Positions 1-41,152 of a stretch of 46,040 nucleotides of DNA are shown piece after piece. Position 1 is the first letter of the stretch; each line of letters starts with the position of its first letter. Position numbers and translations under genes: made by a program. Under the pieces are notes generated by a model. The model saw only the letters and a list, made by a program, of their open reading frames with translations. It had not been told where the DNA came from and ran no database searches. The stretch is from a virus: IMG/VR virus record IMGVR_UViG_3300035180_001716, positions 1-46,040 of that record; one strand, 5' to 3'.

Positions 1-2
1 AG

Positions 3-1472
3 GCGTCCGCTCGCCTCAAGAAACAGGCGGACCCGGCGGAGCAGTCAACGAAGGACCTGGGCGCGTCGATCACGTCGATCAAACTTCCTGCCGTGCAGGC
101 GATGGGCGTCGTCAACACGCTCGCGTCTAGCATCGGCATGCTCGGCGCGGCGGCGGCGTCGTTCGCTGGTGTTCGCCTCGCGGCCCAGTACGAGCGCATC
201 GAGATCGGGTTCAAGTCGATCCTCGGCTCCGCGCAAGCGGCCCACAAGATCATGAGAGAGTTGAGGCAGATGGGCGCAGAGACGCCGTACCGCACCGAGG
301 CGCTCATCGGCTATGCGCGGGGACTTGCGGCGGTCACTCACGACGGCGACAAGGCGGTGGCGACCCTGCGCACGCTGGCAGCGGTCGGTTCGGCGCAGGG
401 CTGGGGCGAGGCGGACGTCGGAGACGTGGCGCGTACGCTCGCCGCTCTCGGCTCATCGTTCCGTCCGGCGGGGCAGGATACGATTATGTCGCTCGCCGCG
501 AAGGGCATTGACATTGCCCGGGTCGCGAAGGCGGCAGGATTGGGCGACTTCGGCACCGACCAGCTCGCCAGCGCACGCGCGGCGCAGGCGATCGGCGCGT
601 ACCAGGGCCCGAGGGCGATGGAACTGCTCATCAAGGGCATGGAGAAAATCTACCCGGCGACGATGAGCTTTACTGGCGTACTCCAGAACCTCGCCGAGTC
701 TCTTTCGCAGATCATGCTCCCGACCGGGCAAATGCTGATACCCGTGCTCGGCGCAATCGCGCGGGCGGTAACGTGGGCCGCGCAGCGCCTCCGCGACCTC
801 AATGAGCGCCTCGGCGGCGCTGGAGGGTTTGCTCTCATCGTTGGCGGTCTCGTGCGCCTTGGGCCGTCGCTCATTGCCAGCATGTATGGGGCGTACATCG
901 GCCTGATGCGCCTGAATGCGGCATTGCAGTCATTGGCGGTGACGTCGAACGCCGCGGCAATGTCAGCTGGCACCGCGGCGGCTACGAATACAGGGGCTGC
1001 GATCGGATGGAAGGCGGCTGGCATAGGTGGCATTCTCGCTCCGGTTCTGAGGTTGTTCGGCGGAGGTCTCGGAAGCACGCTCGCTAAACTGCTCGGAATC
1101 GCCCTGCCAATCGCTGCTCTCGCCGGTGGCATGGCAATGACGAACGATCAACCAGGCGGATGGAACAGTACGAAGAACGCGCTGGGGCGCGGCCTGGAGG
1201 GAGCATTGCCTGGGATGCTCTTGAAGAACATCTACGTCGGTGCCATCGGTGCATTGCTCGGCATTCTGTACGGCATCTGGGAGAACTACCAGCCCAAGCC
1301 GGAGGACGACGCAGCGAAACAAACGGCAGAGAACACGAAGCGGACTGCAGATGCTATGGAACAACTGCGAATGCAGATCATCGGGGGCGGCATTCGAACG
1401 CGCCGCGGGGCATCGGACATCGAGGCGCAGATCAACCTAAGCAGGGCAATGGCTACCCTATCGGGAGTCTAG
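3..1472 (+). CDS. Tape measure protein, copy A (5' end cut by window edge)
   Basis: This is the C-terminal 489 residues of a tail tape measure protein, which sets tail length and lies inside the tail tube. The reading frame is open to the left edge. Against copy B (36570-38126) the missing part is 29 residues, so the full protein would be 518 aa, exactly the length of copy B. The N-terminal half is nearly identical between copies. The middle (about residues 300-430 of the full protein), with hydrophobic Ala/Gly-rich stretches typical of tape measures, is strongly diverged. The last 60 residues, with a charged KPEDDAAKQTAENTKR stretch, are conserved again. Identification rests on position after the frameshifted tail chaperone and on composition; 518 aa is short for the family and implies a short tail. 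Confidence 0.8.
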   Translation, partial: ASARLKKQADPAEQSTKDLGASITSIKLPAVQAMGVVNTLASSIGMLGAAAASFAGVRLAAQYERIEIGFKSILGSAQAAHKIMRELRQMGAETPYRTEALIGYARGLAAVTHDGDKAVATLRTLAAVGSAQGWGEADVGDVARTLAALGSSFRPAGQDTIMSLAAKGIDIARVAKAAGLGDFGTDQLASARAAQAIGAYQGPRAMELLIKGMEKIYPATMSFTGVLQNLAESLSQIMLPTGQMLIPVLGAIARAVTWAAQRLRDLNERLGGAGGFALIVGGLVRLGPSLIASMYGAYIGLMRLNAALQSLAVTSNAAAMSAGTAAATNTGAAIGWKAAGIGGILAPVLRLFGGGLGSTLAKLLGIALPIAALAGGMAMTNDQPGGWNSTKNALGRGLEGALPGMLLKNIYVGAIGALLGILYGIWENYQPKPEDDAAKQTAENTKRTADAMEQLRMQIIGGGIRTRRGASDIEAQINLSRAMATLSGV

Positions 1473-1482
1473 GAGGGATACA

Positions 1483-2001
1483 ATGGCTATTCAGAGCGTT
1501 ACCTACCGCGGCAAGTTGGACGTCGTCGAGGTGCCGAGCGGGGCTGGCATCGCGCCGAGCTCGGTCGTGAACCACACCCTGTTTTCGGGCGGCGTCACTG
1601 CCGGGCGCGACGACGTCTACGGTCCGACCACTACGCCGGCCTGTAACGCCGTGGCGGACTTTCAGCAGGCCCTTTCGTCTGGTGCAGCGACGATCGACCT
1701 GACTGCCCTGCCATCGTTCGGCGGCGCGACGCAGTCGTTCAACGGCAAAAAGGTTGTCGCGGCTAAGTTCCGCAATCCGTCAACGAACGCAAACAGCATC
1801 ACCATCGCACCAGGCGGGACCAACCCGTACGGCCTGCTGGGTACGACGTTCTCGATCACCCTGCAGCCCGGGCAGGAGATTCTGTTCGGCCCGCAGGCGG
1901 CAATCACGGCAAACACGCCGGTCGTGAGCTCGACGATCAAGACCATCGCGCTGACCGGGACGGGCAGCCAGGCGCTTGACGTGCTATTGGTCGCCGGCTA
2001 A
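1483..2001 (+). CDS. Beta-rich tail structural protein, copy A
   Basis: A 172-aa protein rich in Thr, Ser, Gly and Val with alternating hydrophobic residues, suggesting an all-beta virion protein. It has no signal peptide or membrane segment. The SD AGGAGGG overlaps the stop of the tape measure gene, so the two are translationally linked. Its place between tape measure and tail hub is where distal-tail proteins usually lie, but I see no diagnostic motif, so the exact role is open. Copy B (38137-38655) has the same length with only scattered substitutions. Its stop overlaps the stop of the opposing gene at 1998-2180 by four bases. Confidence 0.7.
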   Translation: MAIQSVTYRGKLDVVEVPSGAGIAPSSVVNHTLFSGGVTAGRDDVYGPTTTPACNAVADFQQALSSGAATIDLTALPSFGGATQSFNGKKVVAAKFRNPSTNANSITIAPGGTNPYGLLGTTFSITLQPGQEILFGPQAAITANTPVVSSTIKTIALTGTGSQALDVLLVAG

Positions 2002-2180
2002 TGCCTGGGTTGGGGCCTGGACGCGCGATCCTCGCGTCGGGCCCTCGACCCTACGGCTACAGCGACCAACACGGCGGCAGCGGTCGCCGGTTCGAGCCAG
2101 TTGATGGCGTAGAGCACTGCGCAGGCGAGCAGCACTGCGGCGAGATCATCGCCTGCGTCCTGCAGTGTGTAGCGTGGCAT
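1998..2180 (-). CDS. Small two-helix membrane protein on the antisense strand, copy A
   Basis: A 60-aa protein starting MPRYT with two hydrophobic segments (about residues 13-28 and 33-44) and a highly charged Arg-rich C-terminus, predicted to be an inner-membrane hairpin. It lies alone on the minus strand inside the rightward tail operon. Its start is 11 bases from the GTG start of the hub gene and its stop overlaps the stop of the upstream gene (CTAA). The SD is AGGAGG within a palindrome shared with the opposite gene. The copy B counterpart (38652-38840) keeps the MPRYT start, the D..DL motif, the two helices, VGS and the RR tail, but little else, while flanking genes are nearly unchanged. 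That pattern supports a real, fast-evolving gene. Function unknown; a holin-like, antiholin or superinfection-exclusion role is only a guess. I see no clear minus-strand promoter. Confidence 0.65.
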   Translation of the reverse strand: MPRYTLQDAGDDLAAVLLACAVLYAINWLEPATAAAVLVAVAVGSRARREDRASRPQPRH

Positions 2181-2191
2181 AGGAGCCTCCT
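2181..2191. promoter_or_regulatory. Palindromic ribosome-binding site serving both strands, copy A
   Basis: AGGAGCCTCCT is an 11-base palindrome. Read rightward it gives AGGAG six bases before the GTG at 2192; read leftward it gives AGGAGG five bases before the ATG at 2180. The two start codons are separated by exactly this palindrome. The same arrangement recurs at 38841-38851. Confidence 0.8.
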
Positions 2192-4492
2192 GTGTACTGG
2201 CGATTGACGCTAGATCAACCGTACGTCTGGCCCACTGAGGCGGGTTATCTCGCCTCATTTCATTGTACCGATTTCCTACGCCAGGGCGAAACTACACCAA
2301 CAGTTTACCAGGACCCGATCACCCATCTCGTCATGCTCCGGCCCAACTACGACACGACAGGCGCGTCGTCGGACACCCTGCCCATCTCGGGCTATAGCTA
2401 TCAGCAGGCCTACTGGCGCACGTCGTACGACTCGGACGGCAGGGAGTATCTATCGCCCATATTGCCTGCCGGAGGCGATGAGACACTCATCCAGCTACTG
2501 GTAGACATTGCTATCTATCTGATAATGGGTATGCCTGCCATTCACGACGATCTCGTATGGGCGGTGCACTCGACGCAGACGCTCCGGGCCGATGAGGGGT
2601 TCACGTTTTATTTCAAGCCCCTTTCGGACGAGTTTCAACGAAAGCAGGACTGGTTTTTCATTCAGTGGGACAACATCGGTGTCCATCTTGGGCAGGGGGG
2701 CCGGTGCCGGGTGGTCCTCTACGACCGCGGCGACATGACCAAAACCCCGACGCTCGTCGAGGAGTTCTCGTTCGGGCGGCCCGAGGACCTTGTTGAGCAT
2801 GGGATGATCTCCTTCATTCCGGTCCCCGGCGTCGGCCTCCTGTTTCATGCTAAACGCGTTGCTCCAGGGGCCTCCGCGCGAGCGGCGCGAGCGGAACTCT
2901 GGACCTACAAGGGTCACCTCGTCCGCCTCCCAACGACGTTCGACGCGGCAGGGGTGCCTCACATCACGCAGGAGAGCGCCGTCCACATCGCCGTCAACCC
3001 GTGGGCTCCGACCAGATTAGCACTTGGGCGAGTGAGCTACGGCACGAGCGGCGTCTACGTCGATCAGCCGCGCGACCTCGGCATACCTGTGCCCACGCAG
3101 CCCATCACGATCACGCCCTACTACATCAAGCCGCCGGGCACGAGCGTCTCGGCAGCGGCGAACAACGTCGACGGCACGCCATACGATCCCGGAAGTCACC
3201 GCTATCGGGCGCAACTGACCCTTACGACGACGAACAACTGGCTCACGCCGTTCGTTACCGGCTACACGGCGTACAAACCCTCCGTCCAGACGACGCGGAA
3301 CACGACGCCGATCGTTCTGGCAAACGTGAGCGACGACGGTACCGCGGACCGCCTCCTGCATCTCGAATGGTCACAGGACGAGCGAGACCGGTTCGAGGGG
3401 CGGGCCGTCACGCTCCTGCAGACCCCGGCGGCGCGACGCATTGCCGAGCGGGCCGACACGGTGTTCAAACTGGAGCAGAGCCCGGACAACGCGACCTGGA
3501 CCACACTGTTTGGCGGCATTGCACGCAAACCGACCCTCAAACCCTTCGGAGGCGCTGGGCCGTGGGCCTACATCGCCGAATGGACCCTCCAGGATATCTG
3601 GAGCCGGTTCGAGGAGGTGCGGGTCCTGTGGGCGCCGCGACAGGACAACATGCCGGTGGGCGATGCCATCAATCAGATACTGTCGACGGTGGGTTTCGCG
3701 CCCATTAGTCCTGTGCCAGACGCCGTGAACGCCGTTACGCTCCCGAAGATCATGACCCCGGACCTATCGTGGCAGTTCGCGCCGCGGGAGGGTGACAGTC
3801 TGGAGCAGATGCTGGAAACTCTCCTCCTGTTCCTGCGGGCGCAGTTTGTGGACTGGAAGATGCCGTACAACTGGGACACCGGGCAGTGGAGCATTGTCCA
3901 GCGGTCGCGCGACGTCTCCGCCTACTGGACGCTCGACCCCCGGCCTGGCCGGGCGGACGTGAACAACCGCATATGGCAGTATGGCGACGACACAACCCTG
4001 CGCCCGGAGCCGCCGGAGGGTACGACGCTCCTGCTCATCGGGCGCGCGACGGCTATGCCGATCACGAACACGCCTGGGGTGTCAACGGGTGGTTCGACGA
4101 CGATCGCCATCACCTCCAAACTGCAGAACCCGGCAGCGGGGAACCCGGCGAGCCTCGACTATGCGGGGCGGAACATTCCAGTCATGATCCCCATGTACCC
4201 GATCGACGATCAGCACCAGCTAGACGTCATGGCGCGGCGTCTGTTCGACATGATCATGCATAGAATGCTCGTGGGCACGGTCTCGATACCGATCTACCAG
4301 CCGCTCCTCACTCCAGGCACGCCCGTCAAACTGCTCGATACGACCGGTACGCCGCTCAGCGTCGACGCGCCGAACGGCAGGCCCGCCGAGGCGGATATCC
4401 TCTGGATCAAACGCCGGACAGTAACCATCGACCGAAACAACGCCGAGACGGAGGTGCTTGAGCTGAACTCGATCTGGGAGGCGTTGCAATGA
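2192..4492 (+). CDS. Tail hub / baseplate-like protein, copy A
   Basis: A 766-aa protein, probably the central tail hub at the tail tip. The GTG start is fixed by the SD in the upstream palindrome and by conservation in copy B. Residues about 400-620 (DAINQILSTVGF, then a Leu-rich LEQMLETLLLFLRAQ stretch) and the C-terminus with paired beta-strand domains resemble siphovirus hub proteins of the gp27/Tal type. This is by general pattern and gene order (after tape measure, before fibres), not by a catalytic motif. Copy B (38852-41152) has the same length; differences concentrate at residues 75-130 and about 260-275. It overlaps the next gene by ATGA. Confidence 0.6.
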   Translation: MYWRLTLDQPYVWPTEAGYLASFHCTDFLRQGETTPTVYQDPITHLVMLRPNYDTTGASSDTLPISGYSYQQAYWRTSYDSDGREYLSPILPAGGDETLIQLLVDIAIYLIMGMPAIHDDLVWAVHSTQTLRADEGFTFYFKPLSDEFQRKQDWFFIQWDNIGVHLGQGGRCRVVLYDRGDMTKTPTLVEEFSFGRPEDLVEHGMISFIPVPGVGLLFHAKRVAPGASARAARAELWTYKGHLVRLPTTFDAAGVPHITQESAVHIAVNPWAPTRLALGRVSYGTSGVYVDQPRDLGIPVPTQPITITPYYIKPPGTSVSAAANNVDGTPYDPGSHRYRAQLTLTTTNNWLTPFVTGYTAYKPSVQTTRNTTPIVLANVSDDGTADRLLHLEWSQDERDRFEGRAVTLLQTPAARRIAERADTVFKLEQSPDNATWTTLFGGIARKPTLKPFGGAGPWAYIAEWTLQDIWSRFEEVRVLWAPRQDNMPVGDAINQILSTVGFAPISPVPDAVNAVTLPKIMTPDLSWQFAPREGDSLEQMLETLLLFLRAQFVDWKMPYNWDTGQWSIVQRSRDVSAYWTLDPRPGRADVNNRIWQYGDDTTLRPEPPEGTTLLLIGRATAMPITNTPGVSTGGSTTIAITSKLQNPAAGNPASLDYAGRNIPVMIPMYPIDDQHQLDVMARRLFDMIMHRMLVGTVSIPIYQPLLTPGTPVKLLDTTGTPLSVDAPNGRPAEADILWIKRRTVTIDRNNAETEVLELNSIWEALQ

Positions 4493-4734
4493 TCGCTTCA
4501 GCGGCAGCACGCCGGGCAATGCGACGGGCGAACCAGCGGATCATGGAGCGCGCGGCGGGCCGCCTGCCGTCGGTCATTCACACCGCAGCCGATCAGGTGT
4601 TTGAACGCCAAGCGAGCGGCCTGTCGAGCCTCACTGTTACGCCAGACACGTCACGCCTGCAGGACCCGACTACCGGCGCGTTCTACTTCCTCGCGGGTTA
4701 CTCGGCGGTTGGCGGGCCGGACATCCTGACATGA
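4489..4734 (+). CDS. Small tail-module protein, copy A
   Basis: An 81-aa protein with a basic helical N-terminus (Arg/Ala-rich, residues 1-30) and a Gly/Tyr-containing C-terminus. It is linked by ATGA overlaps to both the hub gene and the fibre gene. The copy B version (41149-41394) has the same length and differs at only a few positions near the C-terminus. I do not recognise the family. Its place between hub and fibre suggests a tail-tip connector or fibre-assembly role. Confidence 0.6.
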   Translation: MIASAAARRAMRRANQRIMERAAGRLPSVIHTAADQVFERQASGLSSLTVTPDTSRLQDPTTGAFYFLAGYSAVGGPDILT

Positions 4735-7628
4735 TCCTGCGGACGACCCGGGTGCGGACGCTGACGTTGACGGGGAGCTTCGATGGCTCCCTGTACTACA
4801 CCCTGCCGCCTCCGCCTCCGGGCATAGGCACGTTGCGACGGCCCACGGTCTCTGCGTCGTTCCCTGCGGCCAATGCCTCTGTTTGGGCAGAAGGCGTTCC
4901 TGGGCCACGGTCGGGCATTATGGTCAAAGCAACGGTCGGCACAACCACGAACTCGACGGACGACATCGTGCAGGTCGTGGCACCTTACACGCGGTCGATC
5001 GCTGGAACGTACACGATCTCTGTGCCAGTCGAGGAGGTCGTTGAACTCACGTTATCCTCCTGGGACGCAGACACGGGTTACCCTATCTGGACTGCGGACT
5101 TGTATGAGCGTACAGCGGTCGGAGGTATGGTCATTGCGTCGATAACTGCTGGTGGCCTCAGCATCAGTGCAACCGGCGCGGTTACGCAGGCAACGCGGAT
5201 CGGTGCCTATGGACCCGAGCTATCGGCAACAATGGACACGAGCCAGTCCGGCTCAACCACGTCGATCTCTGGGAGCATTGCAAACCTGCCACTCTGGCAC
5301 CCTGGATACACATACTCCGAGAGTGGGTGCACGGGCACGATCGCCGCTGGGTCTGTGAGCGCGACGACAGCAGATACGGGCGTTGTCACCGCCGACGGGA
5401 CAATGGCCGGGCAATGCGGCTGGAGCGTCAACGGGATCACGAAGGCATACGACGTGGACTACGTCGGGAACCTCGACCTGCTCATTGATCGCGATTCCGA
5501 CCATCTGCAAACACCCGTCACGGTCGGCGCCTCCTGGACGGACGGAGGCAGTCAGCATGAATACGCCGCCGCCGCCGTAACGATCAATGACGTCACGCAC
5601 AACATGGACACTGCCCAAAGCACCTTCCATCCGGTCAAGGTCCGACTGCGCGCGTCAGGTAGCACCTATAGCCTCGACACGCTCGGGGAGGATACTGCGG
5701 ACGTCTACGTACCATTCCGCTGCTGGCCGACTTTCAGCGCAGTCAGCGCGAAGAACTACGTATTCAGCTTCGATAACTGTTCGACGCTCACTCCCGGAGA
5801 CAACTTGGCTGGCCAGTGGTACGGGCTCGGTGGCGCGGTCCTCTCCATTGAGAACCAACAGATACGCATCGACACGGCGGCGACTGGTATGCAAGGCATC
5901 CGCAGGACGTTCACAAACCGTTGGGCGAACCTGTCTCAGGGGGTCATGGAGCTCGTCATGACGGGCCCCGCCGGGCCGGGCATAACCGTCACGCTCTATT
6001 CGCCGACCGGCGCGACGAAAACGTGGGCACACGATTGGAAAGGGCGGCCGATCGACCTCAGCCTCGGCTACCCGATCCTCGACCTGTGCAACCCGGACAG
6101 CGCGACTGCAGCGGTCGACACCTGGGACACTCGGTGGCCGCTCCCGACGGTCGATTCGGACTATTCGGGCGTCACGAGCTGCAATCAACTGGAGATCACG
6201 GGACTGCAGAACTCGCAAACGTACCATCTCCTCAATATGGAGGTTACATGGGCGAGCAAAACGAACGTTACCTGCATGGCGTCTCGGGCTGGGTGGGCCC
6301 TTGAGCAATCGGCGCAGATCAGCGAGGGCGTCAGCAGTGACACCTACGTCGTGCGTGGCATTCTCGGCATGTCGGACGGCAGGCAGTCGTTCGAAACTGC
6401 GCGCGCCGTCAAGACGGTCGTGCACAGCTCGGGCGGCGACACGACGTCGATTAGCGAGGTGCCCATCGATACCCTGCTTAGTCAGGATAACAACCCGCAG
6501 TTGGAGCCGTGGCCTGCCTATCCGGGCTGGACCATGACGGGCACGATCGTCACAGACCCCGCGGACGGTGGACTGCTCAGCGACTGGCTCAACACGAACC
6601 GGAGTATCGGATGGCTTCGCGGTGGTGGGTGGTCCTACGTTCCCGGCACGGGCTGGGTGGCTGGAACCGACATCCCCGCGGGCGCACCGTCGCAGACGGC
6701 AGACCTCTATGCTCAGGTCTGCGTTGACAGCATTTCGTTCTACCCGGGCTGCGGCGACGCGTTCTCATTCAGTTCGACGAACACGGGCGCATATGGGCCC
6801 ACGCTCTATTGTGCCGCGGCGGCGGTCCTGCGCGGAGGCGGGCATGGGCTCGTCTACGTAGGAGACCCGCGCGTGCCCGTCAACGCACAGACCGTAACGA
6901 ACACGGACACGGTCACGAACGACAGCGCTGGGACAGGCACGACGAACTCCATCGGCTGGTGGGAGAGTGGCACCCCGCTCGGACGGGGCGAGCGGTCCAT
7001 CAAGACCGCCTCAGGGGCGCAGTTCGCCTACACAACCTGGCACAATCGCAAGCGACAGCGGGTTGTCCTCTCGGTGGCGACGCCTGCCGCCTACCGCTGC
7101 GTCGAGTATGACCATCCGCGGAACTGGCTGCATGCGTCGGACGCGAAGAAGATCAAGACGGCCCACGCCTGGGACTTCGCCGCGCTCATGCGGAGCACCG
7201 ACTACCCGTACACGTGGATGAGGCTGCGCGCGAACCCGCATTATGGCTCACTGCTCATGCTGGGGATCACCCCGGCCTCCGCGCCGCCGTACACCTACCA
7301 TGTCTGCTATGGCAAAGACGGCGGTCTGACCACTCAGGAGCTATTTAGCATGACTGCAAACTCGGCGTTGATCGAGCACGACCTTGCCCGGGGCCTATGG
7401 GTGCTCCTATACGAGACCGGCGGGGCGATACAGCGGCGGACCTGTAGCGACGCTTCGGATATGAGCTCGTGGACGGCTGCGACGGCTCTGTCGATCTCGG
7501 GCACGCTTCTCGACTGTGCCTATGACCGCCGGTACGCGCGAATGGCGCTCGTTACGACGTCGGGGAGCGTGACAAAGGTCCTCTCGTCGAGCGACAGCGG
7601 CGAAACCTGGACAGAAAGGCTGGTGTAA
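4731..7628 (+). CDS. Large tail fibre / receptor-binding protein, copy A
   Basis: A 965-aa protein rich in Thr, Ser, Gly, Trp and Cys, with the composition of an adhesin. The N-terminal third (to about residue 330) differs greatly from copy B (998 aa, 41391-44387). From FRCWPTFSAV onward the two are closely similar. The last residues contain an Asp-box motif (SSDSGETWT), typical of BNR/sialidase-like beta-propellers. Large size, position after the hub, and the variable-head, conserved-tail pattern support a host-recognition fibre. It is unusual that the N-terminal, presumably virion-proximal, part is the variable one. Start is by ATGA overlap with the 81-aa gene. Confidence 0.65.
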   Translation: MILRTTRVRTLTLTGSFDGSLYYTLPPPPPGIGTLRRPTVSASFPAANASVWAEGVPGPRSGIMVKATVGTTTNSTDDIVQVVAPYTRSIAGTYTISVPVEEVVELTLSSWDADTGYPIWTADLYERTAVGGMVIASITAGGLSISATGAVTQATRIGAYGPELSATMDTSQSGSTTSISGSIANLPLWHPGYTYSESGCTGTIAAGSVSATTADTGVVTADGTMAGQCGWSVNGITKAYDVDYVGNLDLLIDRDSDHLQTPVTVGASWTDGGSQHEYAAAAVTINDVTHNMDTAQSTFHPVKVRLRASGSTYSLDTLGEDTADVYVPFRCWPTFSAVSAKNYVFSFDNCSTLTPGDNLAGQWYGLGGAVLSIENQQIRIDTAATGMQGIRRTFTNRWANLSQGVMELVMTGPAGPGITVTLYSPTGATKTWAHDWKGRPIDLSLGYPILDLCNPDSATAAVDTWDTRWPLPTVDSDYSGVTSCNQLEITGLQNSQTYHLLNMEVTWASKTNVTCMASRAGWALEQSAQISEGVSSDTYVVRGILGMSDGRQSFETARAVKTVVHSSGGDTTSISEVPIDTLLSQDNNPQLEPWPAYPGWTMTGTIVTDPADGGLLSDWLNTNRSIGWLRGGGWSYVPGTGWVAGTDIPAGAPSQTADLYAQVCVDSISFYPGCGDAFSFSSTNTGAYGPTLYCAAAAVLRGGGHGLVYVGDPRVPVNAQTVTNTDTVTNDSAGTGTTNSIGWWESGTPLGRGERSIKTASGAQFAYTTWHNRKRQRVVLSVATPAAYRCVEYDHPRNWLHASDAKKIKTAHAWDFAALMRSTDYPYTWMRLRANPHYGSLLMLGITPASAPPYTYHVCYGKDGGLTTQELFSMTANSALIEHDLARGLWVLLYETGGAIQRRTCSDASDMSSWTAATALSISGTLLDCAYDRRYARMALVTTSGSVTKVLSSSDSGETWTERLV

Positions 7629-7631
7629 CTC

Positions 7632-8384
7632 ATGGCGATAACTACTCTTGGCGGAACATTGCCGACCTCGGTGACGGCGGCGGGCGTCCGCAACTACTCG
7701 ACAGGTGACTCGGTCTCAGCGGCGGCCCTGCAGGCCGATCTCGGCGATGCCTACGCTCCGGCCATGTACTGCCTTCCGGCGGGGGTGGTGCTTGGGTTCG
7801 CCTGCACGGCCTCTGGTCTCGGCGTAACGATCCCGGCGGGATCTGTCTGGTACGCGCGGCAGGTCTGGCTCGTGACGACAGATACCGTGGTAACGGTGCC
7901 AGACAACGCGACGACCTACCTGTGGGGCTGCTCGGACGGCGTGATCAGACAGACATCGACGACCACTCCGCCGACGGGGTACTCGGCATACACGGCGGCG
8001 ATTGTCGCGCAGGTCTCTGCTTCGGGCGGCGTGGCGACCGTTGCTGCCTACAAACAGTGGGCGATGGGGAGCTCAATCGTTGCCGTCCCGGGCGGTCTGA
8101 CGTCGATCACCGGGGCCCTCCCGGATGCCGACTATACGGTACTCCCGGCACAGTACGCCGGAGAGGTGATCCTCGCGGCGCATTCCGGATGGACAGCGAC
8201 GCACAACCTCGTCATGCCGCTCGCGGCAGGCATGCGCCGGTGGATAGTCAACACGTGCGGGCAGTCGGTCGTCGTCAAAGGGGCAACGGGCACCGGCCCG
8301 ACGATCGCGACGGCGCGCGCGGCCTGCGTCGTCTGTGACGGAACGAACTGGATGCGCCTTACCGCGGATTCGCTCTTGACATAG
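7632..8384 (+). CDS. Tail fibre/tip protein, copy A
   Basis: A 250-aa protein, Thr/Ala/Gly/Val-rich, no membrane segment, probably a trimeric fibre or tip subunit. It starts three bases after the stop of the large fibre gene, with an AAGG-type SD inside that gene. It is strongly conserved in copy B (44391-45143, same length). Its 3' end contains the -35 box of the next promoter (8376-8404), so the coding sequence and the promoter overlap. The C-terminal CDGTNWMRLT segment resembles the ends of many short phage fibre proteins. Role inferred from context and composition. Confidence 0.6.
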   Translation: MAITTLGGTLPTSVTAAGVRNYSTGDSVSAAALQADLGDAYAPAMYCLPAGVVLGFACTASGLGVTIPAGSVWYARQVWLVTTDTVVTVPDNATTYLWGCSDGVIRQTSTTTPPTGYSAYTAAIVAQVSASGGVATVAAYKQWAMGSSIVAVPGGLTSITGALPDADYTVLPAQYAGEVILAAHSGWTATHNLVMPLAAGMRRWIVNTCGQSVVVKGATGTGPTIATARAACVVCDGTNWMRLTADSLLT

Positions 8385-8404
8385 ACGCGCGTACGGCGTA
8401 CAAT
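8376..8404 (+). promoter_or_regulatory. Near-consensus sigma70 promoter for lysis/appendage operon, copy A
   Basis: TTGACA (8376-8381), a 17-base spacer, then TACAAT (8399-8404): one mismatch from consensus. It drives the genes from 8560 on. The -35 lies inside the end of the preceding tip gene. The equivalent at 45135-45163 keeps both hexamers and the spacing while the spacer changes. Confidence 0.85.
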
Positions 8405-8420
8405 GATTGCAACAGCATAT

Positions 8421-8479
8421 AGGCGGCTTTGCGAAGCCCGTTTCCGGCTCAGACGATCCGGGGCGGGCTTCTATCGCCT
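8421..8479 (+). ncRNA. Structured leader with 17-base hairpin element, copy A
   Basis: About 10 bases after the expected transcription start lies GGCGGCTTTGCGAAGCC (8422-8438), which folds as GGCTT-TGCG-AAGCC. The overlapping AAGCCCG (8434-8440) can instead pair perfectly with CGGGCTT (8464-8470), and AGGCG (8421-8425) with CGCCT (8475-8479), so two mutually exclusive folds exist. The 17-mer is identical at 26474-26490 and 45181-45197, each just downstream of a promoter. An antitermination or attenuation element is the likeliest role. Confidence 0.65.
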
Positions 8480-8535
8480 GTGATACCCGCCGTGAGTGCA
8501 CCGGCGTTTGGACCTGACAGCGCGAACGTCCATAA

Positions 8536-8552
8536 CTCCCGCGACGGGGGAG
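8536..8552 (+). promoter_or_regulatory. Hairpin that can mask the ribosome-binding site of the lysis operon
   Basis: CTCCC (8536-8540) is complementary to GGGAG (8548-8552), which is part of the SD for the ATG at 8560. The sequence is identical in copy B (before 45319), so the leader is conserved although non-coding. A role in timing translation is inferred. Confidence 0.4.
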
Positions 8553-8559
8553 GCGCAGG

Positions 8560-8931
8560 ATGACCATTGGAGGAATGTGTCCATTGGCAGGCGACATGCA
8601 GCTTTGTGACCAGGTGATCACACTCGGCAAGGCAGTGCCGGGTCTCATCGAGACGATCAATGCAAATGGCGTGATGCTGGCGCGGATCGAGGAGAAGGTC
8701 AGCGCGTTGCCCGAGATCGCGCGCGGACAGCACGAGGCGGCGCAGCGTCTGGCCGCGCTAGAGGAGCACCTGCGCGCGGCCGAGGCGCGCATCAGCTCGC
8801 TGGAGAAACAACAGGAGGATTCCCGCCGGTTCCTCATCTCGGCCATGTTTGCCGCCGTCATGGGGTTCGTGACGGGGATACTCGGTTTGGCCATGCGCGA
8901 GGGCCATTGGCTCGCGACAGGAGGCAAATGA
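8560..8931 (+). CDS. Coiled-coil, tail-anchored membrane protein (XhlA-like), copy A
   Basis: A 123-aa protein with a long amphipathic coiled coil (about residues 35-85, heptads rich in Glu, Ala and Leu) followed by one C-terminal transmembrane helix (about 92-112, FLISAMFAAVMGFVTGILGL). This layout matches small phage lysis-associated proteins of the XhlA type, and it sits before the amidase and holin genes. A second in-frame ATG at 8575 has its own GGAGGA and could be used. Copy B (45319-45669) is the same to the membrane helix, then ends differently and shorter (116 aa). A role in lysis is inferred from topology and neighbours. Confidence 0.55.
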   Translation: MTIGGMCPLAGDMQLCDQVITLGKAVPGLIETINANGVMLARIEEKVSALPEIARGQHEAAQRLAALEEHLRAAEARISSLEKQQEDSRRFLISAMFAAVMGFVTGILGLAMREGHWLATGGK

Positions 8932-9362
8932 TGGGCACCACTCAGCTCGACATCACTCAGCTCGCGGCAAAAGTCGACGAGATCGTCAAGAAGCTCGCGA
9001 CCATCGCACCGCGGCACTGGAAGGGTAACTGTCCGCCGGACCAGCACCATTTCGACGCCGGGAGCATTCAGGCCGACGCGTCGCTCGACGCAAGCGCGAA
9101 AACGGTAACGATCAGCTTCGAGTTTACCGACCGCGGATCGCCCCACGAGGTAGCGGCGATGATGCGATGGGATCAGATCGGCATTCGAGGTGGTGCGGAC
9201 GTCGTGGCCGTTGACGGCGTCCAGCTCTCTAACGCTGACTGCGTGATCGGGCACCGCGAGGGGCTGGAGGGTCTGCACTGGTACGCGCGCATCGTCTGCG
9301 AGTTCCGCGGCAATCTCCCCACTGGCGCGCCCGTGCACTACCGCTTCGACGGAGACCTCTAA
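8931..9362 (+). CDS. Hypothetical virion or lysis-operon protein, copy A
   Basis: A 143-aa protein with a helical N-terminus (residues 1-25) and a beta-rich remainder containing HWKGNCPPDQHHFDAG and two cysteines. Of two adjacent in-frame ATGs (8928 and 8931) I take the second, because copy B (from 45693) has only that one; the SD is GGAGG. The stop TAA shares a base with the amidase start. No recognised domain. Position suggests a structural or lysis-accessory protein. Confidence 0.55.
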   Translation: MGTTQLDITQLAAKVDEIVKKLATIAPRHWKGNCPPDQHHFDAGSIQADASLDASAKTVTISFEFTDRGSPHEVAAMMRWDQIGIRGGADVVAVDGVQLSNADCVIGHREGLEGLHWYARIVCEFRGNLPTGAPVHYRFDGDL

Positions 9363-9865
9363 TGCCGGACCTGGCGTACATCTGGCTGCCCGCGAGGGCG
9401 TTCAAGCCGGGCAGAACGGGGCCGATCAGTGCGATCATTCTGCATTCGTCCGATGGGCGGGAGCAGGGTGACCTCGAAACGCTCACCGGGCCGGAGGTGT
9501 CGGCGCATTACTACGTGACGCGCGCCGGTACGCTCTATCACCTCGTGCAGGACAGCGACACGGCCTATCACGTCGGCGCGGCGGATCGGCCCGAGCACGG
9601 CAACAGCAGAACGATCGGGATCGAGCAGGAACATATCGACGGGCAGGACGATTGGCCGGAGGCCCAGCTCACGACCGTCGCCCGACTTGTCGCCGCCCTG
9701 CGTCTCAAGCACGGCTATCTGCCAGTGATCTCACATGCCGCAGTGGCCACGCCGCCGGGCCGCAAGGTCGACCCGCAGGGTTACCCGTGGCTCCTGCTCA
9801 GTGCGGCGGTAGAGGCGGAGAAGGGCCGGTCGTGGCGGCTGGTGCCGGCAGGAGAATCGAAATGA
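9362..9865 (+). CDS. Endolysin: N-acetylmuramoyl-L-alanine amidase (amidase_2)
   Basis: A 167-aa single-domain enzyme that cuts the bond between N-acetylmuramic acid and L-alanine in peptidoglycan to release progeny. The family signature is visible: IILHSSDG near residue 22 (zinc-ligand His), SAHYYVTRAGTLYHLVQD near 50, NSRTIGIEQEH near 83, SHAAVATPPGRKVDP near 123 with the second metal His and the Lys of T7-lysozyme-like enzymes, then D-P-Q-G-Y-P-W. There is no cell-wall-binding domain and no signal peptide, so it needs a holin. The ATG overlaps the preceding stop (TAATG), and the gene overlaps the holin gene by ATGA. Confidence 0.9.
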   Translation: MPDLAYIWLPARAFKPGRTGPISAIILHSSDGREQGDLETLTGPEVSAHYYVTRAGTLYHLVQDSDTAYHVGAADRPEHGNSRTIGIEQEHIDGQDDWPEAQLTTVARLVAALRLKHGYLPVISHAAVATPPGRKVDPQGYPWLLLSAAVEAEKGRSWRLVPAGESK

Positions 9866-13376: not shown

Positions 13377-13787
13377 TCAGCGGTTGACGCATTTCCTGAT
13401 GAACTGTGACATCGTGAGGCATTCCTCCTCCGCGCGCCTGCGAATATGCGCCAGCTCCGCCTCCGACAGGCGGAACCGAATAACCCGATCCCTGGGTTCC
13501 TGAATGTCGACGAGTCCGAGGACCTCGGCGAACTCTTCAAGCGCGTTCGCGTGCCTGCCCTCCTCCAGCAATTTCCGCGCGCGCGCCGGAGTGACGGGTA
13601 TGATGCGCGCCCCAGCGAACTCCGTCTTTGGGCCTCCCTCGCCTGCAAGGAACCACCGCCCGCCGTTGGGGGCGTAGTATAGCGTCGCAAGCCAGCAAGA
13701 CTCCTGATCAAACGGGTTGTGGTAAACCGGCGCAACCGGTATCGCATGCTTGGTGTCGTAGGTGACGCCGTCAATGGCCTGCCGCAT
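13377..13787 (-). CDS. Small phage domain fused to ribbon-helix-helix-like C-terminus
   Basis: A 136-aa protein. Residues 1-95 are paralogous to the whole of the neighbouring 13805-14149 product: a DGVTYDT start, an ATLYYAPNGGRWFLAGEGG core and an IPVTPARARKLLEEG helix. Residues about 98-136 (RVIRFRLSEAELAHIRRRAE, ending SQFIRKCVNR) match the ribbon-helix-helix/MobC-like DNA-binding pattern. So this copy has gained or kept a DNA-binding tail that the paralogue lacks. It is the last gene of the leftward operon. Likely a small regulator, target unknown. Confidence 0.6.
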   Translation of the reverse strand: MRQAIDGVTYDTKHAIPVAPVYHNPFDQESCWLATLYYAPNGGRWFLAGEGGPKTEFAGARIIPVTPARARKLLEEGRHANALEEFAEVLGLVDIQEPRDRVIRFRLSEAELAHIRRRAEEECLTMSQFIRKCVNR

Positions 13788-13804
13788 CTCCGTTTGATCC
13801 TCCC

Positions 13805-14149: not shown

Positions 14150-14168
14150 TCTCCTCCTGTGTGTGAGT

Positions 14169-14192
14169 GGGGCGGGAAATCACTCCCGCCCC
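14169..14192. terminator. GC-rich intergenic hairpin in the leftward operon
   Basis: GGGGCGGGA (14169-14177) pairs perfectly with TCCCGCCCC (14184-14192) across a six-base loop, between two leftward genes. No U-run follows on the minus strand, so partial termination or an mRNA-processing/stability role is more likely than full termination. Confidence 0.45.
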
Positions 14193-14197
14193 GAGTG

Positions 14198-14875: not shown

Positions 14876-14964
14876 TTCGTCCTGCTCCTCCGCTGCGTCC
14901 CGGGTCGGTGACGGCTTACGCGATGTAGGGGCCCGCCTATTGCCGGGCGGGCGCGGCTTGTACG

Positions 14965-15216: not shown

Positions 15217-15303
15217 CGTCCTTCTCCTCCGCTGCGCTCCGGTCACGGTAGCGTCTTGTGCGGGGTTTGCCTCATCAGCATGGGGGGAACCGCCTCCCCG
15301 TGG

Positions 15304-15321: not shown

Positions 15322-15330
15322 TTCGGCAGA

Positions 15331-36569: not shown

Positions 36570-38126
36570 ATGAACGACGAGCAACTAGGGCGACTGCTCA
36601 TCAACGTAGCGATACAGGATGAGGGCACGACCAAGGCCCTTGATGACGTCGGGCAGGCGTCCGCTCGCCTCAAGAAACAGGCGGACCCGGCGGAGCAGTC
36701 AACGAAGGACCTGGGCGCGTCGATCACGTCGATCAAACTTCCTGCCGTGCAGGCGATGGGCGTCGTCAACACGCTCGCGTCCAGCATTGGCATGCTCGGC
36801 GCGGCGGCGGCGTCGTTCGCCGGTGTCCGCCTCGCGGCCCAGTACGAGCGGATCGAGATCGGCTTCAAGTCCATCCTCGGCTCCGCGCAGGCGGCCCACA
36901 AGATCATGCGTGAACTGAGGCAGATGGGCACAGAGACGCCGTACCGGACCGAGGCGCTCATCGGCTACGCGCGGGGCCTCGCCGCGGTAACTCACGATGG
37001 CGACAAGGCGGTGGCGACCCTACGAACGCTCGCGGCAGTCGGCTCGGCGCAGGGCTGGGGCGAGGCGGACGTCGGAGACGTGGCGCGTACGCTCGCCTCG
37101 CTCGGCTCGTCGTTCCGTCCGGCAGGGCAGGACACGATCATGTCGCTCGCCGCGAAGGGGATCGACATCGCTCGGGTGGCGAAGGCCGCCGGGCTAGGCG
37201 ACTTCGGGACCGGCCCTTATGCTACTGCGCGGGCGTCTATGGCGTTTGGGGCGCTGCAGGGCCCGAGAGCGATGGAGCTACTGATCAAGGGCATGGAGAA
37301 AATCTACCCGGCGACGATGAGCTTCCTAGGGGTGATCCAGAACCTGGGCGAGTCATTGGCGCAGATCATGCTCCCAACGGGCCAGATGCTCATACCTGTG
37401 CTCGGCGCAATCGCGCGGGCGGTGACCTGGGCGGCGCAGCGTCTGCATGACCTCAACGAGTATCTCGGCGGTACGGCGGGTTTCGTGTTCATTCTGGCTG
37501 GGATCATAAGGATAGGGCCATCGTTGATCGCCAGTCTGCAAGGGGCGTACGCCGGCCTGGTGCGCCTGAACATGCAACTGCGAATGCTGGCCGGCACATC
37601 GACCGCAGCAGCAATAGCAGGCGGCGGGGCCGCCGCGTCGAGTGCAGGGGCCGCGCTCGGCTGGGGCGCTTTGGGCAAGGGCGGGTTCAATGCGATGAAG
37701 GGCCTGCTCGCAGGGGGCGGTCTAAGGGTCGCTCTCATGGGCATAGCGCGCGCGTTCCTTCCACTCGCCATAGGTATGGGCGGAGAGCTCCTAGCGTCTG
37801 ATAAGCAGGGCAAAGGGTATTCCGCGATGAACATCGCCGGGCGCGCTCTTGAGGCTGGGGCGATGGGGTTCATGGTCGGTGGCCCATGGGGGGCAGCGAT
37901 CGGCGCGGCGCTCGGGGCAGGCTACGGCATCTGGGAGAACTACCAGCCAAAACCGGAGGACGACGCGGCCAAACAGACCGCGGAGAATACGAAGCGCACC
38001 GCAGACGCCATGGACCAGCTACGCATGCAGGTCATCGGGGGCGGCGTTCGAACGCGCCGCGGGGCATCGGACATCGAGGCTCAAATCAACCTGAGCAGGG
38101 CAATGGCGACCCTATCCGGGGTCTAG
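36570..38126 (+). CDS. Tape measure protein, copy B (complete)
   Basis: A 518-aa tape measure protein, complete in this copy. Residues 1-60 are polar with a short coiled coil; a conserved AAQYERIEIGFKSILGSAQA near 90 is typical of phage tail tape measures; residues 300-460 are hydrophobic and Ala/Gly-rich; the end is charged. Length equals copy A although the middle differs strongly. It follows the frameshifted chaperone with GAGTGAGA upstream of the ATG. Confidence 0.8.
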   Translation: MNDEQLGRLLINVAIQDEGTTKALDDVGQASARLKKQADPAEQSTKDLGASITSIKLPAVQAMGVVNTLASSIGMLGAAAASFAGVRLAAQYERIEIGFKSILGSAQAAHKIMRELRQMGTETPYRTEALIGYARGLAAVTHDGDKAVATLRTLAAVGSAQGWGEADVGDVARTLASLGSSFRPAGQDTIMSLAAKGIDIARVAKAAGLGDFGTGPYATARASMAFGALQGPRAMELLIKGMEKIYPATMSFLGVIQNLGESLAQIMLPTGQMLIPVLGAIARAVTWAAQRLHDLNEYLGGTAGFVFILAGIIRIGPSLIASLQGAYAGLVRLNMQLRMLAGTSTAAAIAGGGAAASSAGAALGWGALGKGGFNAMKGLLAGGGLRVALMGIARAFLPLAIGMGGELLASDKQGKGYSAMNIAGRALEAGAMGFMVGGPWGAAIGAALGAGYGIWENYQPKPEDDAAKQTAENTKRTADAMDQLRMQVIGGGVRTRRGASDIEAQINLSRAMATLSGV

Positions 38127-38136: not shown

Positions 38137-38655
38137 ATGGCTATTCAAAGCGTTACCTACCGTGGCAAACTGGACGTGGTCGAGGTACCGAGCGGGGCGG
38201 CCATCGCGCCGACCTCGGTCGTGAACCACACGTTGTTCTCGGGCGGCGTTACCGTCGGGCGCGACGACGTCTATGGGCCGACCACTACGCCGGCCTGCAA
38301 TGCCGTTGCCGACTTTCAGCAGGCCCTTTCGTCTGGGGCAGCGACGATCGACCTGACTGCCCTGCCATCGTTCGGCGGCGCAACGCAGTCGTTCAACGGG
38401 AAGAAGGTTGTCGCGGCTAAGTTCCGCAACCCAAGCACGAACGCGAACAGTATCACCATTGCTCAGGGCGGGACGAACCCCTATGGCCTGCTGGGTACGA
38501 CGTTCTCCATCACGCTGCAGCCAGGGCAGGAGATTCTGTTCGGCCCGCAGGCGGCCGTCACTGCGTCGACACCCGCAGTGAGCTCGACGGTGAAGACCAT
38601 CGCGCTCACGGGCACGGGCAGCCAGGCGCTCGACGTTCTGCTGGTCGCCGGCTAG
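38137..38655 (+). CDS. Beta-rich tail structural protein, copy B
   Basis: A 172-aa counterpart of 1483-2001, nearly identical, with the same SD embedded after the tape measure stop (TAGGAGGG). Its stop TAG overlaps the stop of the antisense membrane gene (CTAG, palindromic). Role as for copy A: virion protein of unknown exact function. Confidence 0.7.
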   Translation: MAIQSVTYRGKLDVVEVPSGAAIAPTSVVNHTLFSGGVTVGRDDVYGPTTTPACNAVADFQQALSSGAATIDLTALPSFGGATQSFNGKKVVAAKFRNPSTNANSITIAQGGTNPYGLLGTTFSITLQPGQEILFGPQAAVTASTPAVSSTVKTIALTGTGSQALDVLLVAG

Positions 38656-38840
38656 GGTTTTGGATCGTCCGTGGGGTCGACGTCGCGTCGCAGTCGTCTG
38701 AGATACGATCCCACGGTGATCGCAAAGCCGGTGAGGAACATCATGCGCGGAGTAAGCGCACCGAAAACGAAGAGACACACCCAGAACACCGCGAGAATGT
38801 TCAGGTCGACGAGTAGGTCGGCAGCAGTGTAGCGTGGCAT
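38652..38840 (-). CDS. Small two-helix membrane protein on the antisense strand, copy B
   Basis: A 62-aa protein starting MPRYT, with hydrophobic helices (about residues 11-29, with VFWVCLFVFGAL, and 33-46) and a charged RRLRRDVD tail. Same orientation, start signal and stop overlap as at 1998-2180, but the protein is diverged except for the start, DL, a central Pro, VGS and the Arg pair. Because the flanking genes barely differ, the gene is either replaced as a cassette or evolves very fast. Confidence 0.65.
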   Translation of the reverse strand: MPRYTAADLLVDLNILAVFWVCLFVFGALTPRMMFLTGFAITVGSYLRRLRRDVDPTDDPKP

Positions 38841-38851
38841 AGGAGCCTCCT
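38841..38851. promoter_or_regulatory. Palindromic ribosome-binding site serving both strands, copy B
   Basis: The same AGGAGCCTCCT palindrome as 2181-2191, between the ATG at 38840 (minus) and GTG at 38852 (plus). Conserved while the antisense gene itself is diverged. Confidence 0.8.
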
Positions 38852-41152
38852 GTGTACTGGCGATTGACGCTGGACCAACCGTACGTCTGGCCTACGGAGG
38901 CGGGTTACCTCGCCTCATTTCACTGTACGGATTTCCTGCGCCAGGGCGAAACTACACCAACAGTTTACCAGGACCCGATCACCCATCTGGTCATGCTCCG
39001 GCCCAACTACGACACGACGGGCGCGTCGTCGGACACCCTGCCCATCTCGGGCTACAGCTATCAGCAAGGCTACTGGCGGGTATCGTTCGACTCGGACGGC
39101 AGGCCGTCTCTCTCGCCCATATTGCCTGCTGGGGGCAGTGTGTCGTTCATCGAGCTATTGGTAGACATCGCGATCTTCATGATTGTCGGGCAGGAAGCGC
39201 TTCAAGATAAGCTCATCTGGGCACTGCACACAACCCAGACGCTCCGGGCAGACGAAGGGTTTACGTTCTATTTCAAGCCCCTCTCGGACGAGTTTCAACG
39301 AAAGCAAGACTGGTTCTTCATCCAGTGGGACAACATCGGCGTCCATCTCGGGCAGGGAGGCCGATGCCGGGTCGTCCTCTACGACCGCAGCGATATGACC
39401 AAGGCTCCGACGCTCGTGGAGGAGTTCTCGTTCGGGCGGCCCGAGGACCTCGTTGAGCATGGGATGATCTCCTTCATCCCGGTACCGGGCGTGGGCTTGC
39501 TTTTTCACGCTAAGCGTGTCGCTCCGGGAGCCCCAGCACGAGCGGCCCGGGCGGAACTGTGGACCTACAAGGGCCATCTAGTCCGGCTCCCGACGACGTT
39601 TGACGCATCAGGGGTCCCTCACATCACGCAGGAGAGCTCCGTCCACATCGGTTTGAACCCGTGGGCGATAGCGAGGGTAGCCGTGGGGCGGGTGAGCTAC
39701 GGAACGAGCGGCATCTACGTCGATCAGCCGCGCGACCTCGGCATACCTGTGCCCACGCAGCCCATCACGATCACGCCCTATTACATCAAGCCCCCGGGCA
39801 CGCATGTCTCAGCCGCGGCCAACAACGTCGATGGCACGCCATACGATCCCGGCAGTCATCGCTATCGGGCGCAACTGACCCTCACGACGACGAACAACTG
39901 GCTCACGCCGTTCGTCACCGGCTACACGGCCTACAAACCGTCCGTGCAGACCACGCGGAACACGACGCCGATCGTTCTGGCGAATGTGAGCGACGACGGC
40001 ACCGCGGATCGCCTCCTGCACCTCGAATGGTCACAGGATGAGCGGGATCGGTTCGAGGGTCGGGCCGTCACGCTTCTGCAGACCCCAGCGGCGCGACGCA
40101 TTGCCGAGCGGGCCGACACGGTGTTCAAACTGGAGCAGAGCACGGACAACGCGACGTGGAGCACGTTATTTGGTGGCATTGCGCGCAAACCGACCTTGAA
40201 ACCTTTCGGCGGCGCGGGGCCGTGGGCGTACATCGCCGAGTGGACCCTGCAGGATATCTGGAGCCGGTTCGAGGAGGTCCGGGTCCTGTGGGCGCCGCGA
40301 CAGGACAACATGCCGGTGGGCGACGCCATCAACCAGATACTGTCGACGGTGGGTTTTGCGCCCATCTCGCCTGTGCCGGATGCCGTGAACGCCGTCACGC
40401 TCCCGAAGATCATGACGCCAGACCTATCGTGGCAGTTCGCACCGAGGGAGGGCGACAGTCTGGAGCAGATGCTGGAGACCCTGCTTCTGTTCCTGCGGGC
40501 GCAGTTCGTGGACTGGAAGATGCCGTACAACTGGGACACCGGGCAATGGTCCATTGTTCAGCGTTCGCGCGACGTCTCCGCCTACTGGACGCTCGACCCC
40601 CGACCTGGTACAGCGAACGCCAACAACCGCGTCTGGCAATACGGCGACGACACGACCCTGCGCCCGGAGCCACCGGAGGGCACGACGCTCCTGCTCATCG
40701 GGCGCGCGACGGCCATGCCAATCACCAACACGCCGGGGGTGTCAACGGGCGGCTCGACGACAATCGCCATCACGTCCAAGCTTCAGAACCCGGCGGCGGG
40801 CAACCCGGCAAGCCTCGACTATGCGGGGCGGAACATCCCGGTCATGATCCCCATGTACCCGATTGACGACCAGAAACAGTTGGACGTCATGGCGCGGCGT
40901 CTGTTTGACATGATCATGCATAGAATGCTTGTGGGCACAATCTCGATACCGATCTACCAGCCACTCCTCACGCCGGGTACGCCCGTCAAACTGCTCGACA
41001 CGACGGGTACGCCGCTTGCCGTCGACGCTCCGAACGGCAGACCTGCCGAGGCGGATATCCTCTGGATCAAACGCAGGACAGTGACCGTGGACCGCAACAA
41101 TGTGGAAACGGAGGTGCTAGAGCTCAACTCGGTCTGGGAGGCGTTGCAATGA
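38852..41152 (+). CDS. Tail hub / baseplate-like protein, copy B
   Basis: A 766-aa counterpart of 2192-4492, same length. Differences cluster near residues 75-130 and 260-275; the rest, including the DAINQILSTVGF and LEQMLETLLLFLRAQ hub-like part, is nearly identical. GTG start with the palindromic SD. Overlaps the next gene by ATGA. Confidence 0.6.
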   Translation: MYWRLTLDQPYVWPTEAGYLASFHCTDFLRQGETTPTVYQDPITHLVMLRPNYDTTGASSDTLPISGYSYQQGYWRVSFDSDGRPSLSPILPAGGSVSFIELLVDIAIFMIVGQEALQDKLIWALHTTQTLRADEGFTFYFKPLSDEFQRKQDWFFIQWDNIGVHLGQGGRCRVVLYDRSDMTKAPTLVEEFSFGRPEDLVEHGMISFIPVPGVGLLFHAKRVAPGAPARAARAELWTYKGHLVRLPTTFDASGVPHITQESSVHIGLNPWAIARVAVGRVSYGTSGIYVDQPRDLGIPVPTQPITITPYYIKPPGTHVSAAANNVDGTPYDPGSHRYRAQLTLTTTNNWLTPFVTGYTAYKPSVQTTRNTTPIVLANVSDDGTADRLLHLEWSQDERDRFEGRAVTLLQTPAARRIAERADTVFKLEQSTDNATWSTLFGGIARKPTLKPFGGAGPWAYIAEWTLQDIWSRFEEVRVLWAPRQDNMPVGDAINQILSTVGFAPISPVPDAVNAVTLPKIMTPDLSWQFAPREGDSLEQMLETLLLFLRAQFVDWKMPYNWDTGQWSIVQRSRDVSAYWTLDPRPGTANANNRVWQYGDDTTLRPEPPEGTTLLLIGRATAMPITNTPGVSTGGSTTIAITSKLQNPAAGNPASLDYAGRNIPVMIPMYPIDDQKQLDVMARRLFDMIMHRMLVGTISIPIYQPLLTPGTPVKLLDTTGTPLAVDAPNGRPAEADILWIKRRTVTVDRNNVETEVLELNSVWEALQ

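What the first reader, a model, noticed from the sequence alone, without database searches (positions are those of the whole stretch)
2178..2194. One palindrome serves as ribosome-binding site for two genes facing away from each other
The start codons of the antisense membrane gene (ATG ending at 2180) and the tail hub gene (GTG at 2192) are separated only by AGGAGCCTCCT, which reads as a good SD on both strands. It recurs unchanged at 38841-38851. I know of no standard gene arrangement with start codons this close head-to-head, and it leaves no room for promoters between them. Each gene's leader must be antisense to the other's 5' coding region, so expression of one could interfere with the other.
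Basis: partly seen in the sequence, partly recalled or inferred. Interest (0 to 1): 0.85.

Follow-up and report, generated by a model that had tools for sequence, protein, structure and literature searches.

The report
Antisense phage gene sharing ribosome-binding site
A tiny membrane-protein gene of a phage is slotted backwards between two tail genes so tightly that one 11-letter palindrome serves as ribosome-binding site for it and for the tail gene on the other strand; the small protein's variants travel with variants of the phage's DNA-injection (tape-measure) protein.

Summary
AGGAGCCTCCT is all that lies between two divergent start codons at 2178-2194 and again at 38838-38854. The second site is not a second locus in one genome. 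The contig appears to be one ~36.7 kb circular genome read past its origin into another strain, so the two sites are two alleles of one locus. Three more contigs carry the same unit, giving five alleles. All five keep the palindrome, a 60-62 aa antisense frame (MPRYT..., two predicted transmembrane helices), and a stop overlapping the upstream tail gene's stop. Substitutions show purifying selection in the antisense frame, so it is a gene. The architecture is a 'noncontiguous operon' at the shortest head-to-head distance that leaves both genes a Shine-Dalgarno sequence. Unrelated phages and Thermodesulfobacterium chromosomes show the same shared palindromic site, so it is rare but recurrent; I found no description of it. 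New here: the antisense gene's divergent allelic types match types of the hydrophobic part of the tape-measure protein although the region between does not follow. My preferred reading is a tape-measure-matched membrane exclusion or defence protein, comparable in placement to Tab and Tai. Transcription, translation and function are untested; only five alleles exist.

The parts
2181..2191 (.). Palindrome AGGAGCCTCCT: Shine-Dalgarno AGGAG for the plus gene, AGGAGG (2191-2186) for the minus gene (allele w1)
   Evidence: identical in 5/5 alleles
38841..38851 (.). Same palindrome, allele w2 (second strain's copy of the same locus)
1998..2180 (-). Antisense gene, 60 aa, two predicted TM helices, type A; stop TAG overlaps the stop of the upstream plus gene
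   Evidence: dN/dS 0.03/0.19 against its nearest allele, p=0.004
38652..38840 (-). Antisense gene, 62 aa, type C (nearer type B), codon-usage score above the 99th percentile of wrong frames
2192..4492 (+).
   Evidence: 90-94% identical across five alleles; no family match
38852..41152 (+). 766-aa tail protein, allele w2
1483..2001 (+). 172-aa tail protein upstream; its stop codon overlaps the antisense gene's stop codon
38137..38655 (+). 172-aa tail protein upstream, allele w2 (stop overlap is the palindrome CTAG)
2177..2195 (+). Predicted mRNA hairpin GCAUAGGA-GCC-UCCUGUGU (-8.4 kcal/mol) covering SD and GTG of the plus gene; the minus strand counterpart is only -3.2
2192..2371 (+). First 60 codons of the 766-aa gene: low four-fold-site diversity (0.187 vs 0.299), possible seat of the antisense promoter/leader
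   Evidence: no sigma-70-like promoter found
800..1280 (+). Variable, hydrophobic segment of the tape-measure gene whose allelic types match those of the antisense gene (allele w1)
37454..37934 (+). Same tape-measure segment, allele w2 (residues about 295-455 of 518)

Best explanation
The locus is a noncontiguous phage tail operon. A 60-62 aa two-helix membrane protein is encoded antisense between two co-directional tail genes and fitted without a spare base: its stop overlaps the upstream gene's stop, and its start lies 11 bp from the start of the next tail gene. At that distance both genes can have an SD only if the spacer is a palindrome, so AGGAGCCTCCT serves as SD on whichever RNA is made. 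Late transcription runs through the antisense gene and would shut it off; in the other state a minus-strand transcript starting inside the 766-aa gene would express the membrane protein and cover that gene's start. The product most likely acts on phage DNA entry or tail function through the membrane-inserting part of the tape-measure protein, as an exclusion or defence protein whose allele must match the phage's own tape measure. Shown: both genes, geometry, conservation, allele matching. Inferred: transcription, mutual silencing, function (about 0.35 for the tape-measure link being causal).
For: Five alleles keep palindrome, antisense ORF, stop overlap and length 60-62. Excess synonymous change in the antisense frame: w1/L144 8 of 49 synonymous vs 4 of 131 nonsynonymous sites, p=0.004; w2/L142 p=0.0006. 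Invariant MPRYT, D8, D12, VGS, RR, with hydrophobic stretches kept in diverged types; AF2 helices 6-27 and 31-54, pLDDT 70. Allele matching: tape-measure segment and antisense gene both split {w1,L144} (63 and 51 informative sites); the 172-aa gene between gives 4 for that split and 7 for {w1,w2}; another variable block, the tail-tip N-terminus, does not follow. The tape-measure segment is hydrophobic. Precedents: Tab, minus-strand, targets the tape-measure protein through its C-terminus; Tai, opposite to the late operon, reduced when the late activator Q is expressed. Unrelated shared palindromic SDs.
Against: No RNA, ribosome or protein data. No recognisable promoter on either strand nearby. 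Only five alleles; if antisense types were dealt at random over the five genomes the exact match would have a chance of about 1 in 15 (my count), and holding w1 and L144 together is not rejected in the region between (p-AU 0.079), so plain linkage is possible. No PHROG, Pfam or PADLOC match for the antisense protein and no homologue in annotated phages. No integrase or classical repressor found among the genes scanned, so a lysogenic state in which the antisense gene would be on is not shown. Allele w1's codon usage is uninformative.
Confidence: 0.6

Rival explanations
1. The antisense gene is an ordinary small accessory gene ('moron', for instance a holin-like or other membrane protein) that happened to land here; the palindrome is only the tightest way to fit two SDs, with no regulatory meaning, and the match to tape-measure types is linkage.
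For: The geometry alone explains the palindrome. Linkage is not excluded with five alleles (p-AU 0.079). Unrelated gene pairs with the same palindrome carry unrelated proteins (HTH protein, putative BON lipoprotein, small TM proteins), so the palindrome does not go with one function.
Against: Separate divergent types of the gene are kept at a fixed place, and another variable block does not follow them. A weak holin-like match (phrog_689) and an amidase lie elsewhere, at 8560-9865, so this need not be the holin.
Confidence: 0.25
2. The minus ORF is not translated; the palindrome is a hairpin or protein-binding site that controls translation of the 766-aa gene, and the open antisense frame is a by-product of high G+C.
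For: The plus RNA can form a -8.4 kcal/mol hairpin over SD and GTG; allele w1's antisense codon usage is not gene-like.
Against: Frame-specific purifying selection in two independent comparisons, fixed start, stop and length in strongly diverged types, conserved two-helix protein pattern. On the minus strand the SD is the stronger one.
Confidence: 0.06
3. The palindrome is itself the regulator: the two mRNAs pair through the shared SD so that each blocks the other's ribosome-binding site.
For: Any two transcripts covering the site are fully complementary across both SDs and starts; the 11 bp and the neighbouring first codons are invariant in five alleles.
Against: Full antisense overlap would silence by polymerase collision or RNase III without any special role for the palindrome; no transcript is known; RNA folds are not more stable than shuffles.
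Confidence: 0.1

Closest known systems
Noncontiguous operon (S. aureus menE-menC-MW1733-ytkD; reviewed in PMC7154746)
   Same: A gene transcribed opposite to, and lying inside, a co-directional operon; its mRNA would double as antisense RNA
   Different: Here the antisense gene has no spacer on either side, shares its SD palindrome with the next operon gene and must have its promoter inside or beyond that gene; co-transcription not tested
Tab / anti-Tab of Pseudomonas phage JBD26 (PMC10884400)
   Same: Minus-strand gene among plus-strand late genes; activity linked to the C-terminal part of the tape-measure protein
   Different: Tab lies between terminase genes with its own promoter and a plus-strand anti-Tab partner; sequence relation not tested; no anti-partner identified here
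Tai / Ati of phage phi80 (PMC11364771) and Tha / Ith of S. aureus phage 80alpha (PMC11087260)
   Same: Phage opposed gene pairs in noncontiguous operons linking defence to the lysogenic or lytic state; Tai blocks tail assembly, Tha senses tail proteins
   Different: No shared SD reported in the passages read; different proteins; here no counter-defence gene is identified
HK97 gp15 superinfection exclusion protein (Cumby et al. 2012, 2015; cited in PMC13190303, papers not held)
   Same: From memory: small inner-membrane phage protein that blocks DNA entry, with specificity tied to the tape-measure protein
   Different: No sequence relation tested; gp15's gene orientation not checked here
Divergent overlapping genes (PMC2174442)
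   Same: Two genes head to head with crowded initiation signals; the rarest overlap class (331 divergent vs 12,737 co-directional)
   Different: Here the coding parts do not overlap: the start codons are 11 bp apart with a common SD palindrome

Membership tests
Noncontiguous operon | Lone gene on the opposite strand inside a co-directional gene cluster | tested here: met
   Plus-strand genes on both sides by codon usage and ORFs; conserved in five alleles
Noncontiguous operon | Flanking genes transcribed on one RNA across the antisense gene | not testable with these tools
   No transcript data
Noncontiguous operon | Antisense gene has its own promoter and the two RNAs regulate each other | tested here: inconclusive
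   No consensus promoter; four-fold-site diversity low in the first 60 codons of the plus gene
Tab-like tape-measure-directed defence | Minus-strand gene within the late gene cluster | tested here: met
   Tab placement from PMC10884400
Tab-like tape-measure-directed defence | Sequence homology to a known anti-phage defence protein | tested here: not met
   No PADLOC match up to E=1; PADLOC-DB is from 2023, before Tab was published, so Tab itself was not compared
Tab-like tape-measure-directed defence | Target specificity set by the tape-measure protein | tested here: inconclusive
   Allele types match in 5/5 but linkage is not rejected
HK97 gp15-type superinfection exclusion | Small inner-membrane protein | tested here: inconclusive
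   Two hydrophobic helices predicted in all types; location in the inner membrane is prediction only
HK97 gp15-type superinfection exclusion | Blocks DNA entry of phages with a given tape measure | not testable with these tools
   Needs infection assays; host unknown
Divergent overlapping genes | Coding regions overlap at their 5' ends | tested here: not met
   Start codons are separated by 11 bp

The most novel reading that the evidence does not exclude
A previously undescribed gene arrangement, the shared palindromic Shine-Dalgarno site, has arisen repeatedly where a lone antisense gene is packed flush into an operon. In this phage it makes expression of a tail gene and of a tape-measure-matched membrane exclusion protein mutually exclusive at the level of ribosome access as well as transcription.
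Probability: 0.2. Interest if true: 0.8.

Novelty: new variant of a known kind. Interest (0 to 1): 0.57.

Why it matters
It shows how little DNA two opposed genes need: 11 bp can hold both initiation signals, with any promoter pushed into the neighbour's coding region. Such small antisense genes are easily missed by gene finders, and noncontiguous phage operons have recently yielded defence systems (Tai, Tha; Tab is placed likewise). The matching of antisense-gene types to tape-measure types points to a testable partner for an otherwise anonymous small membrane protein, and 'AGGAGNCTCCT between divergent starts' is a simple search key for more.

Tried and rejected
Relatives of the 766-aa gene outside this phage group: none in IMG/VR beyond three contigs, none in annotated phages, none in 84,980 genomes. 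Distant major-capsid relatives (38-50%) share almost no tail genes with the window, so they say nothing about the site. Annotated phage homologues of the antisense protein: none. Consensus promoters: none. Special RNA stability of the leaders: none beyond shuffles. AF2 model of the 766-aa protein: pLDDT 29, unusable, so its 'hub' identity stays open. A control palindrome in the same geometry (AGGTGNCACCT) gave 3 hits in IMG/VR, and a wider-spaced SD palindrome 11, none of either with two convincing genes: the double use is rare. Plus-strand ORF 2001-2207 (68 aa) considered as an alternative gene and rejected: its start is absent in the other alleles.

Full report
WHAT IS IN THE SEQUENCE. Between the minus-strand start codon at 2180..2178 and the plus-strand GTG at 2192 lie only the 11 bases AGGAGCCTCCT; the same holds at 38840..38838 and 38852. 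The motif AGGAGNCTCCT occurs nowhere else in the window; shuffled sequence gives 0.01. Of 23 head-to-head CAT/NTG pairs 9-13 nt apart with two frames of at least 60 codons, only these two have SDs on both strands.

THE TWO SITES ARE ALLELES. Window 1-9278 and 36655-46040 align at 84-89%. The record is a 46,040-base virus contig. A relative's contig of 37,949 bases closes on itself with a 107-bp direct repeat and has one module; a contig 100% identical to window 21686-38639 stops just before the antisense gene. The simplest reading (inference) is one circular genome of about 36.7 kb assembled past its origin into a second strain. So the recurrence is two alleles (w1, w2), not two loci.

THE ANTISENSE FRAME IS A GENE. 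Three further contigs carry the unit: IMGVR 3300035180_001524 (L003/L142), 3300037010_000842 (L004/L144), 3300035180_001355 (L129/L138/L005). All five alleles have AGGAGCCTCCT, an antisense ORF of 60-62 codons beginning MPRYT, and a TAG stop overlapping the stop of the 172-aa gene. Sixteen residues are invariant although types share as little as 32% identity. Substitutions are frame-specific: w1/L144 dN 0.031, dS 0.185 (p=0.004); w2/L142 dN 0.315, dS 0.915 (p=0.0006); the close pair L142/L138 alone is not significant (p=0.11). Codon usage supports w2 (above the 99th percentile of wrong frames) but not w1. AF2 gives two helices, 6-27 and 31-54, at mean pLDDT 70.

THE TWO INITIATION SITES. The minus leader offers AGGAGG and ATG; the plus leader AGGAG and GTG. 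Predicted anti-SD pairing is -10.3 against -6.5 kcal/mol. The plus RNA can fold GCAUAGGA-GCC-UCCUGUGU (-8.4 kcal/mol) over its SD and GUG; G-U pairs become A-C mismatches on the minus strand, leaving -3.2. So the antisense gene has the better site. An in-frame stop at 2180-2182 excludes an upstream start for the plus gene. Four-fold sites in the first 60 codons of the plus gene vary less than in 99.7% of other 60-codon windows (0.187 vs 0.299); windows overlap, so this is only a hint of a second signal there, such as the antisense promoter. No sigma-70-like promoter was found.

ALLELE TYPES MATCH THE TAPE MEASURE. Sliding identity shows two blocks where the five sequences fall into types: the tape-measure gene at 800-1280 and the antisense gene. 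Both join w1 with L144 (63 and 51 informative sites) and L142 with L138 (27 and 14), with w2 apart. The 172-aa gene between them does not: 4 sites for {w1,L144}, 7 for {w1,w2}; holding w1 and L144 together costs 4.6 log units, p-AU 0.079. The short end of the tape-measure gene after the block (1290-1472) weakly keeps w1 with L144 (support 89/86). A separate variable block, the N-terminal 300 residues of the tail-tip protein, sets w1 apart from all four others. The tape-measure block is its hydrophobic part. This suggests, with five sequences and without statistical proof, that the antisense membrane protein and the membrane-inserting part of the tape measure are partners.

ELSEWHERE. A truncated scan for CATNNGGAGNCTCCTNTG in IMG/VR gave about 120 loci, mostly chance. 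Among them are pairs in which both genes look real and one is a lone antisense gene abutting its neighbour's 3' end: L059/L006, a 57-aa TM protein against a tail-fibre gene; L067, a 188-aa HTH_17 protein between two minus-strand genes; L088, a 77-aa membrane protein beside an Rz-like spanin; L120, two short ORFs, less certain. In 84,980 genomes CATNAGGAGNCTCCTNATG has 53 hits; three Thermodesulfobacterium species keep the same pair of ~130-aa genes, one a putative BON-type lipoprotein (my reading of the sequence), around it, and L255 looks real too. The arrangement is rare and recurrent, and not tied to one protein family.

COMPARISON. Lone antisense genes inside operons are noncontiguous operons (PMC7154746), known in phages: Tha/Ith (PMC11087260), Tai/Ati, where expressing the late activator Q lowers Tai (PMC11364771), and, in placement, Tab, a minus-strand gene whose activity depends on the tape-measure C-terminus (PMC10884400). 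SNIPE shows that tape measures are met at the inner membrane during injection (PMC13190303). Divergent overlaps are the rarest class (PMC2174442). A search for palindromic, shared or overlapping SD phrases found nothing relevant; the library lacks most subscription papers.

VERDICT. Observation confirmed; gene pair real; arrangement a compact variant of the noncontiguous operon. Mutual silencing is likely but untested; the tape-measure-matched exclusion role is the best lead and the least certain step.

Noticed in passing
1-9278 and 36655-46040: The contig carries two diverged copies of the tail module 36.66 kb apart; it looks like a circular genome assembled past its origin into a second strain, so gene counts from this record are inflated.
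   Followed up: yes
4731-5680 versus 41391-42400: The N-terminal ~300 residues of the 965/998-aa tail-tip protein are replaced in w1 (24-31% identity) while the rest is mostly 80-97%: a candidate receptor-binding swap.
   Followed up: partly
L142, at positions matching window 398-500: A further variable stretch in the N-terminal half of the tape-measure gene sets L142 apart (64% against ~93%).
   Followed up: no
13377-15540: Five minus-strand genes in a row, one with a NikA-like ribbon-helix-helix match, facing plus genes with a second RHH-like protein (15994-16527): a possible control region. No integrase was recognised.
   Followed up: partly
L209, L210, L211, L215, L220, L229, L231, L232, L237, L247, L252, L258: Halieaceae genomes conserve CATNAGGAGNCTCCTNATG before a secreted-protein gene (MNAKFKPLGLVAAVAAATAGY...); the opposite ORF is short and variable (11-54 aa), so the palindrome is kept there without an obvious second gene.
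   Followed up: partly
L225, L227, L239: Three Thermodesulfobacterium species keep a divergent pair (putative BON-type lipoprotein and a ~129-aa protein) around AAGGAGCCTCCTNATG: a chromosomal case of a shared palindromic SD.
   Followed up: partly
2236-2257: A 9-bp hairpin (TGAGGCGGGTTATCTCGCCTCA) followed by TTTCATT lies inside the 766-aa gene, in what would be the 5' leader of the antisense gene; terminator-like on the plus strand.
   Followed up: no
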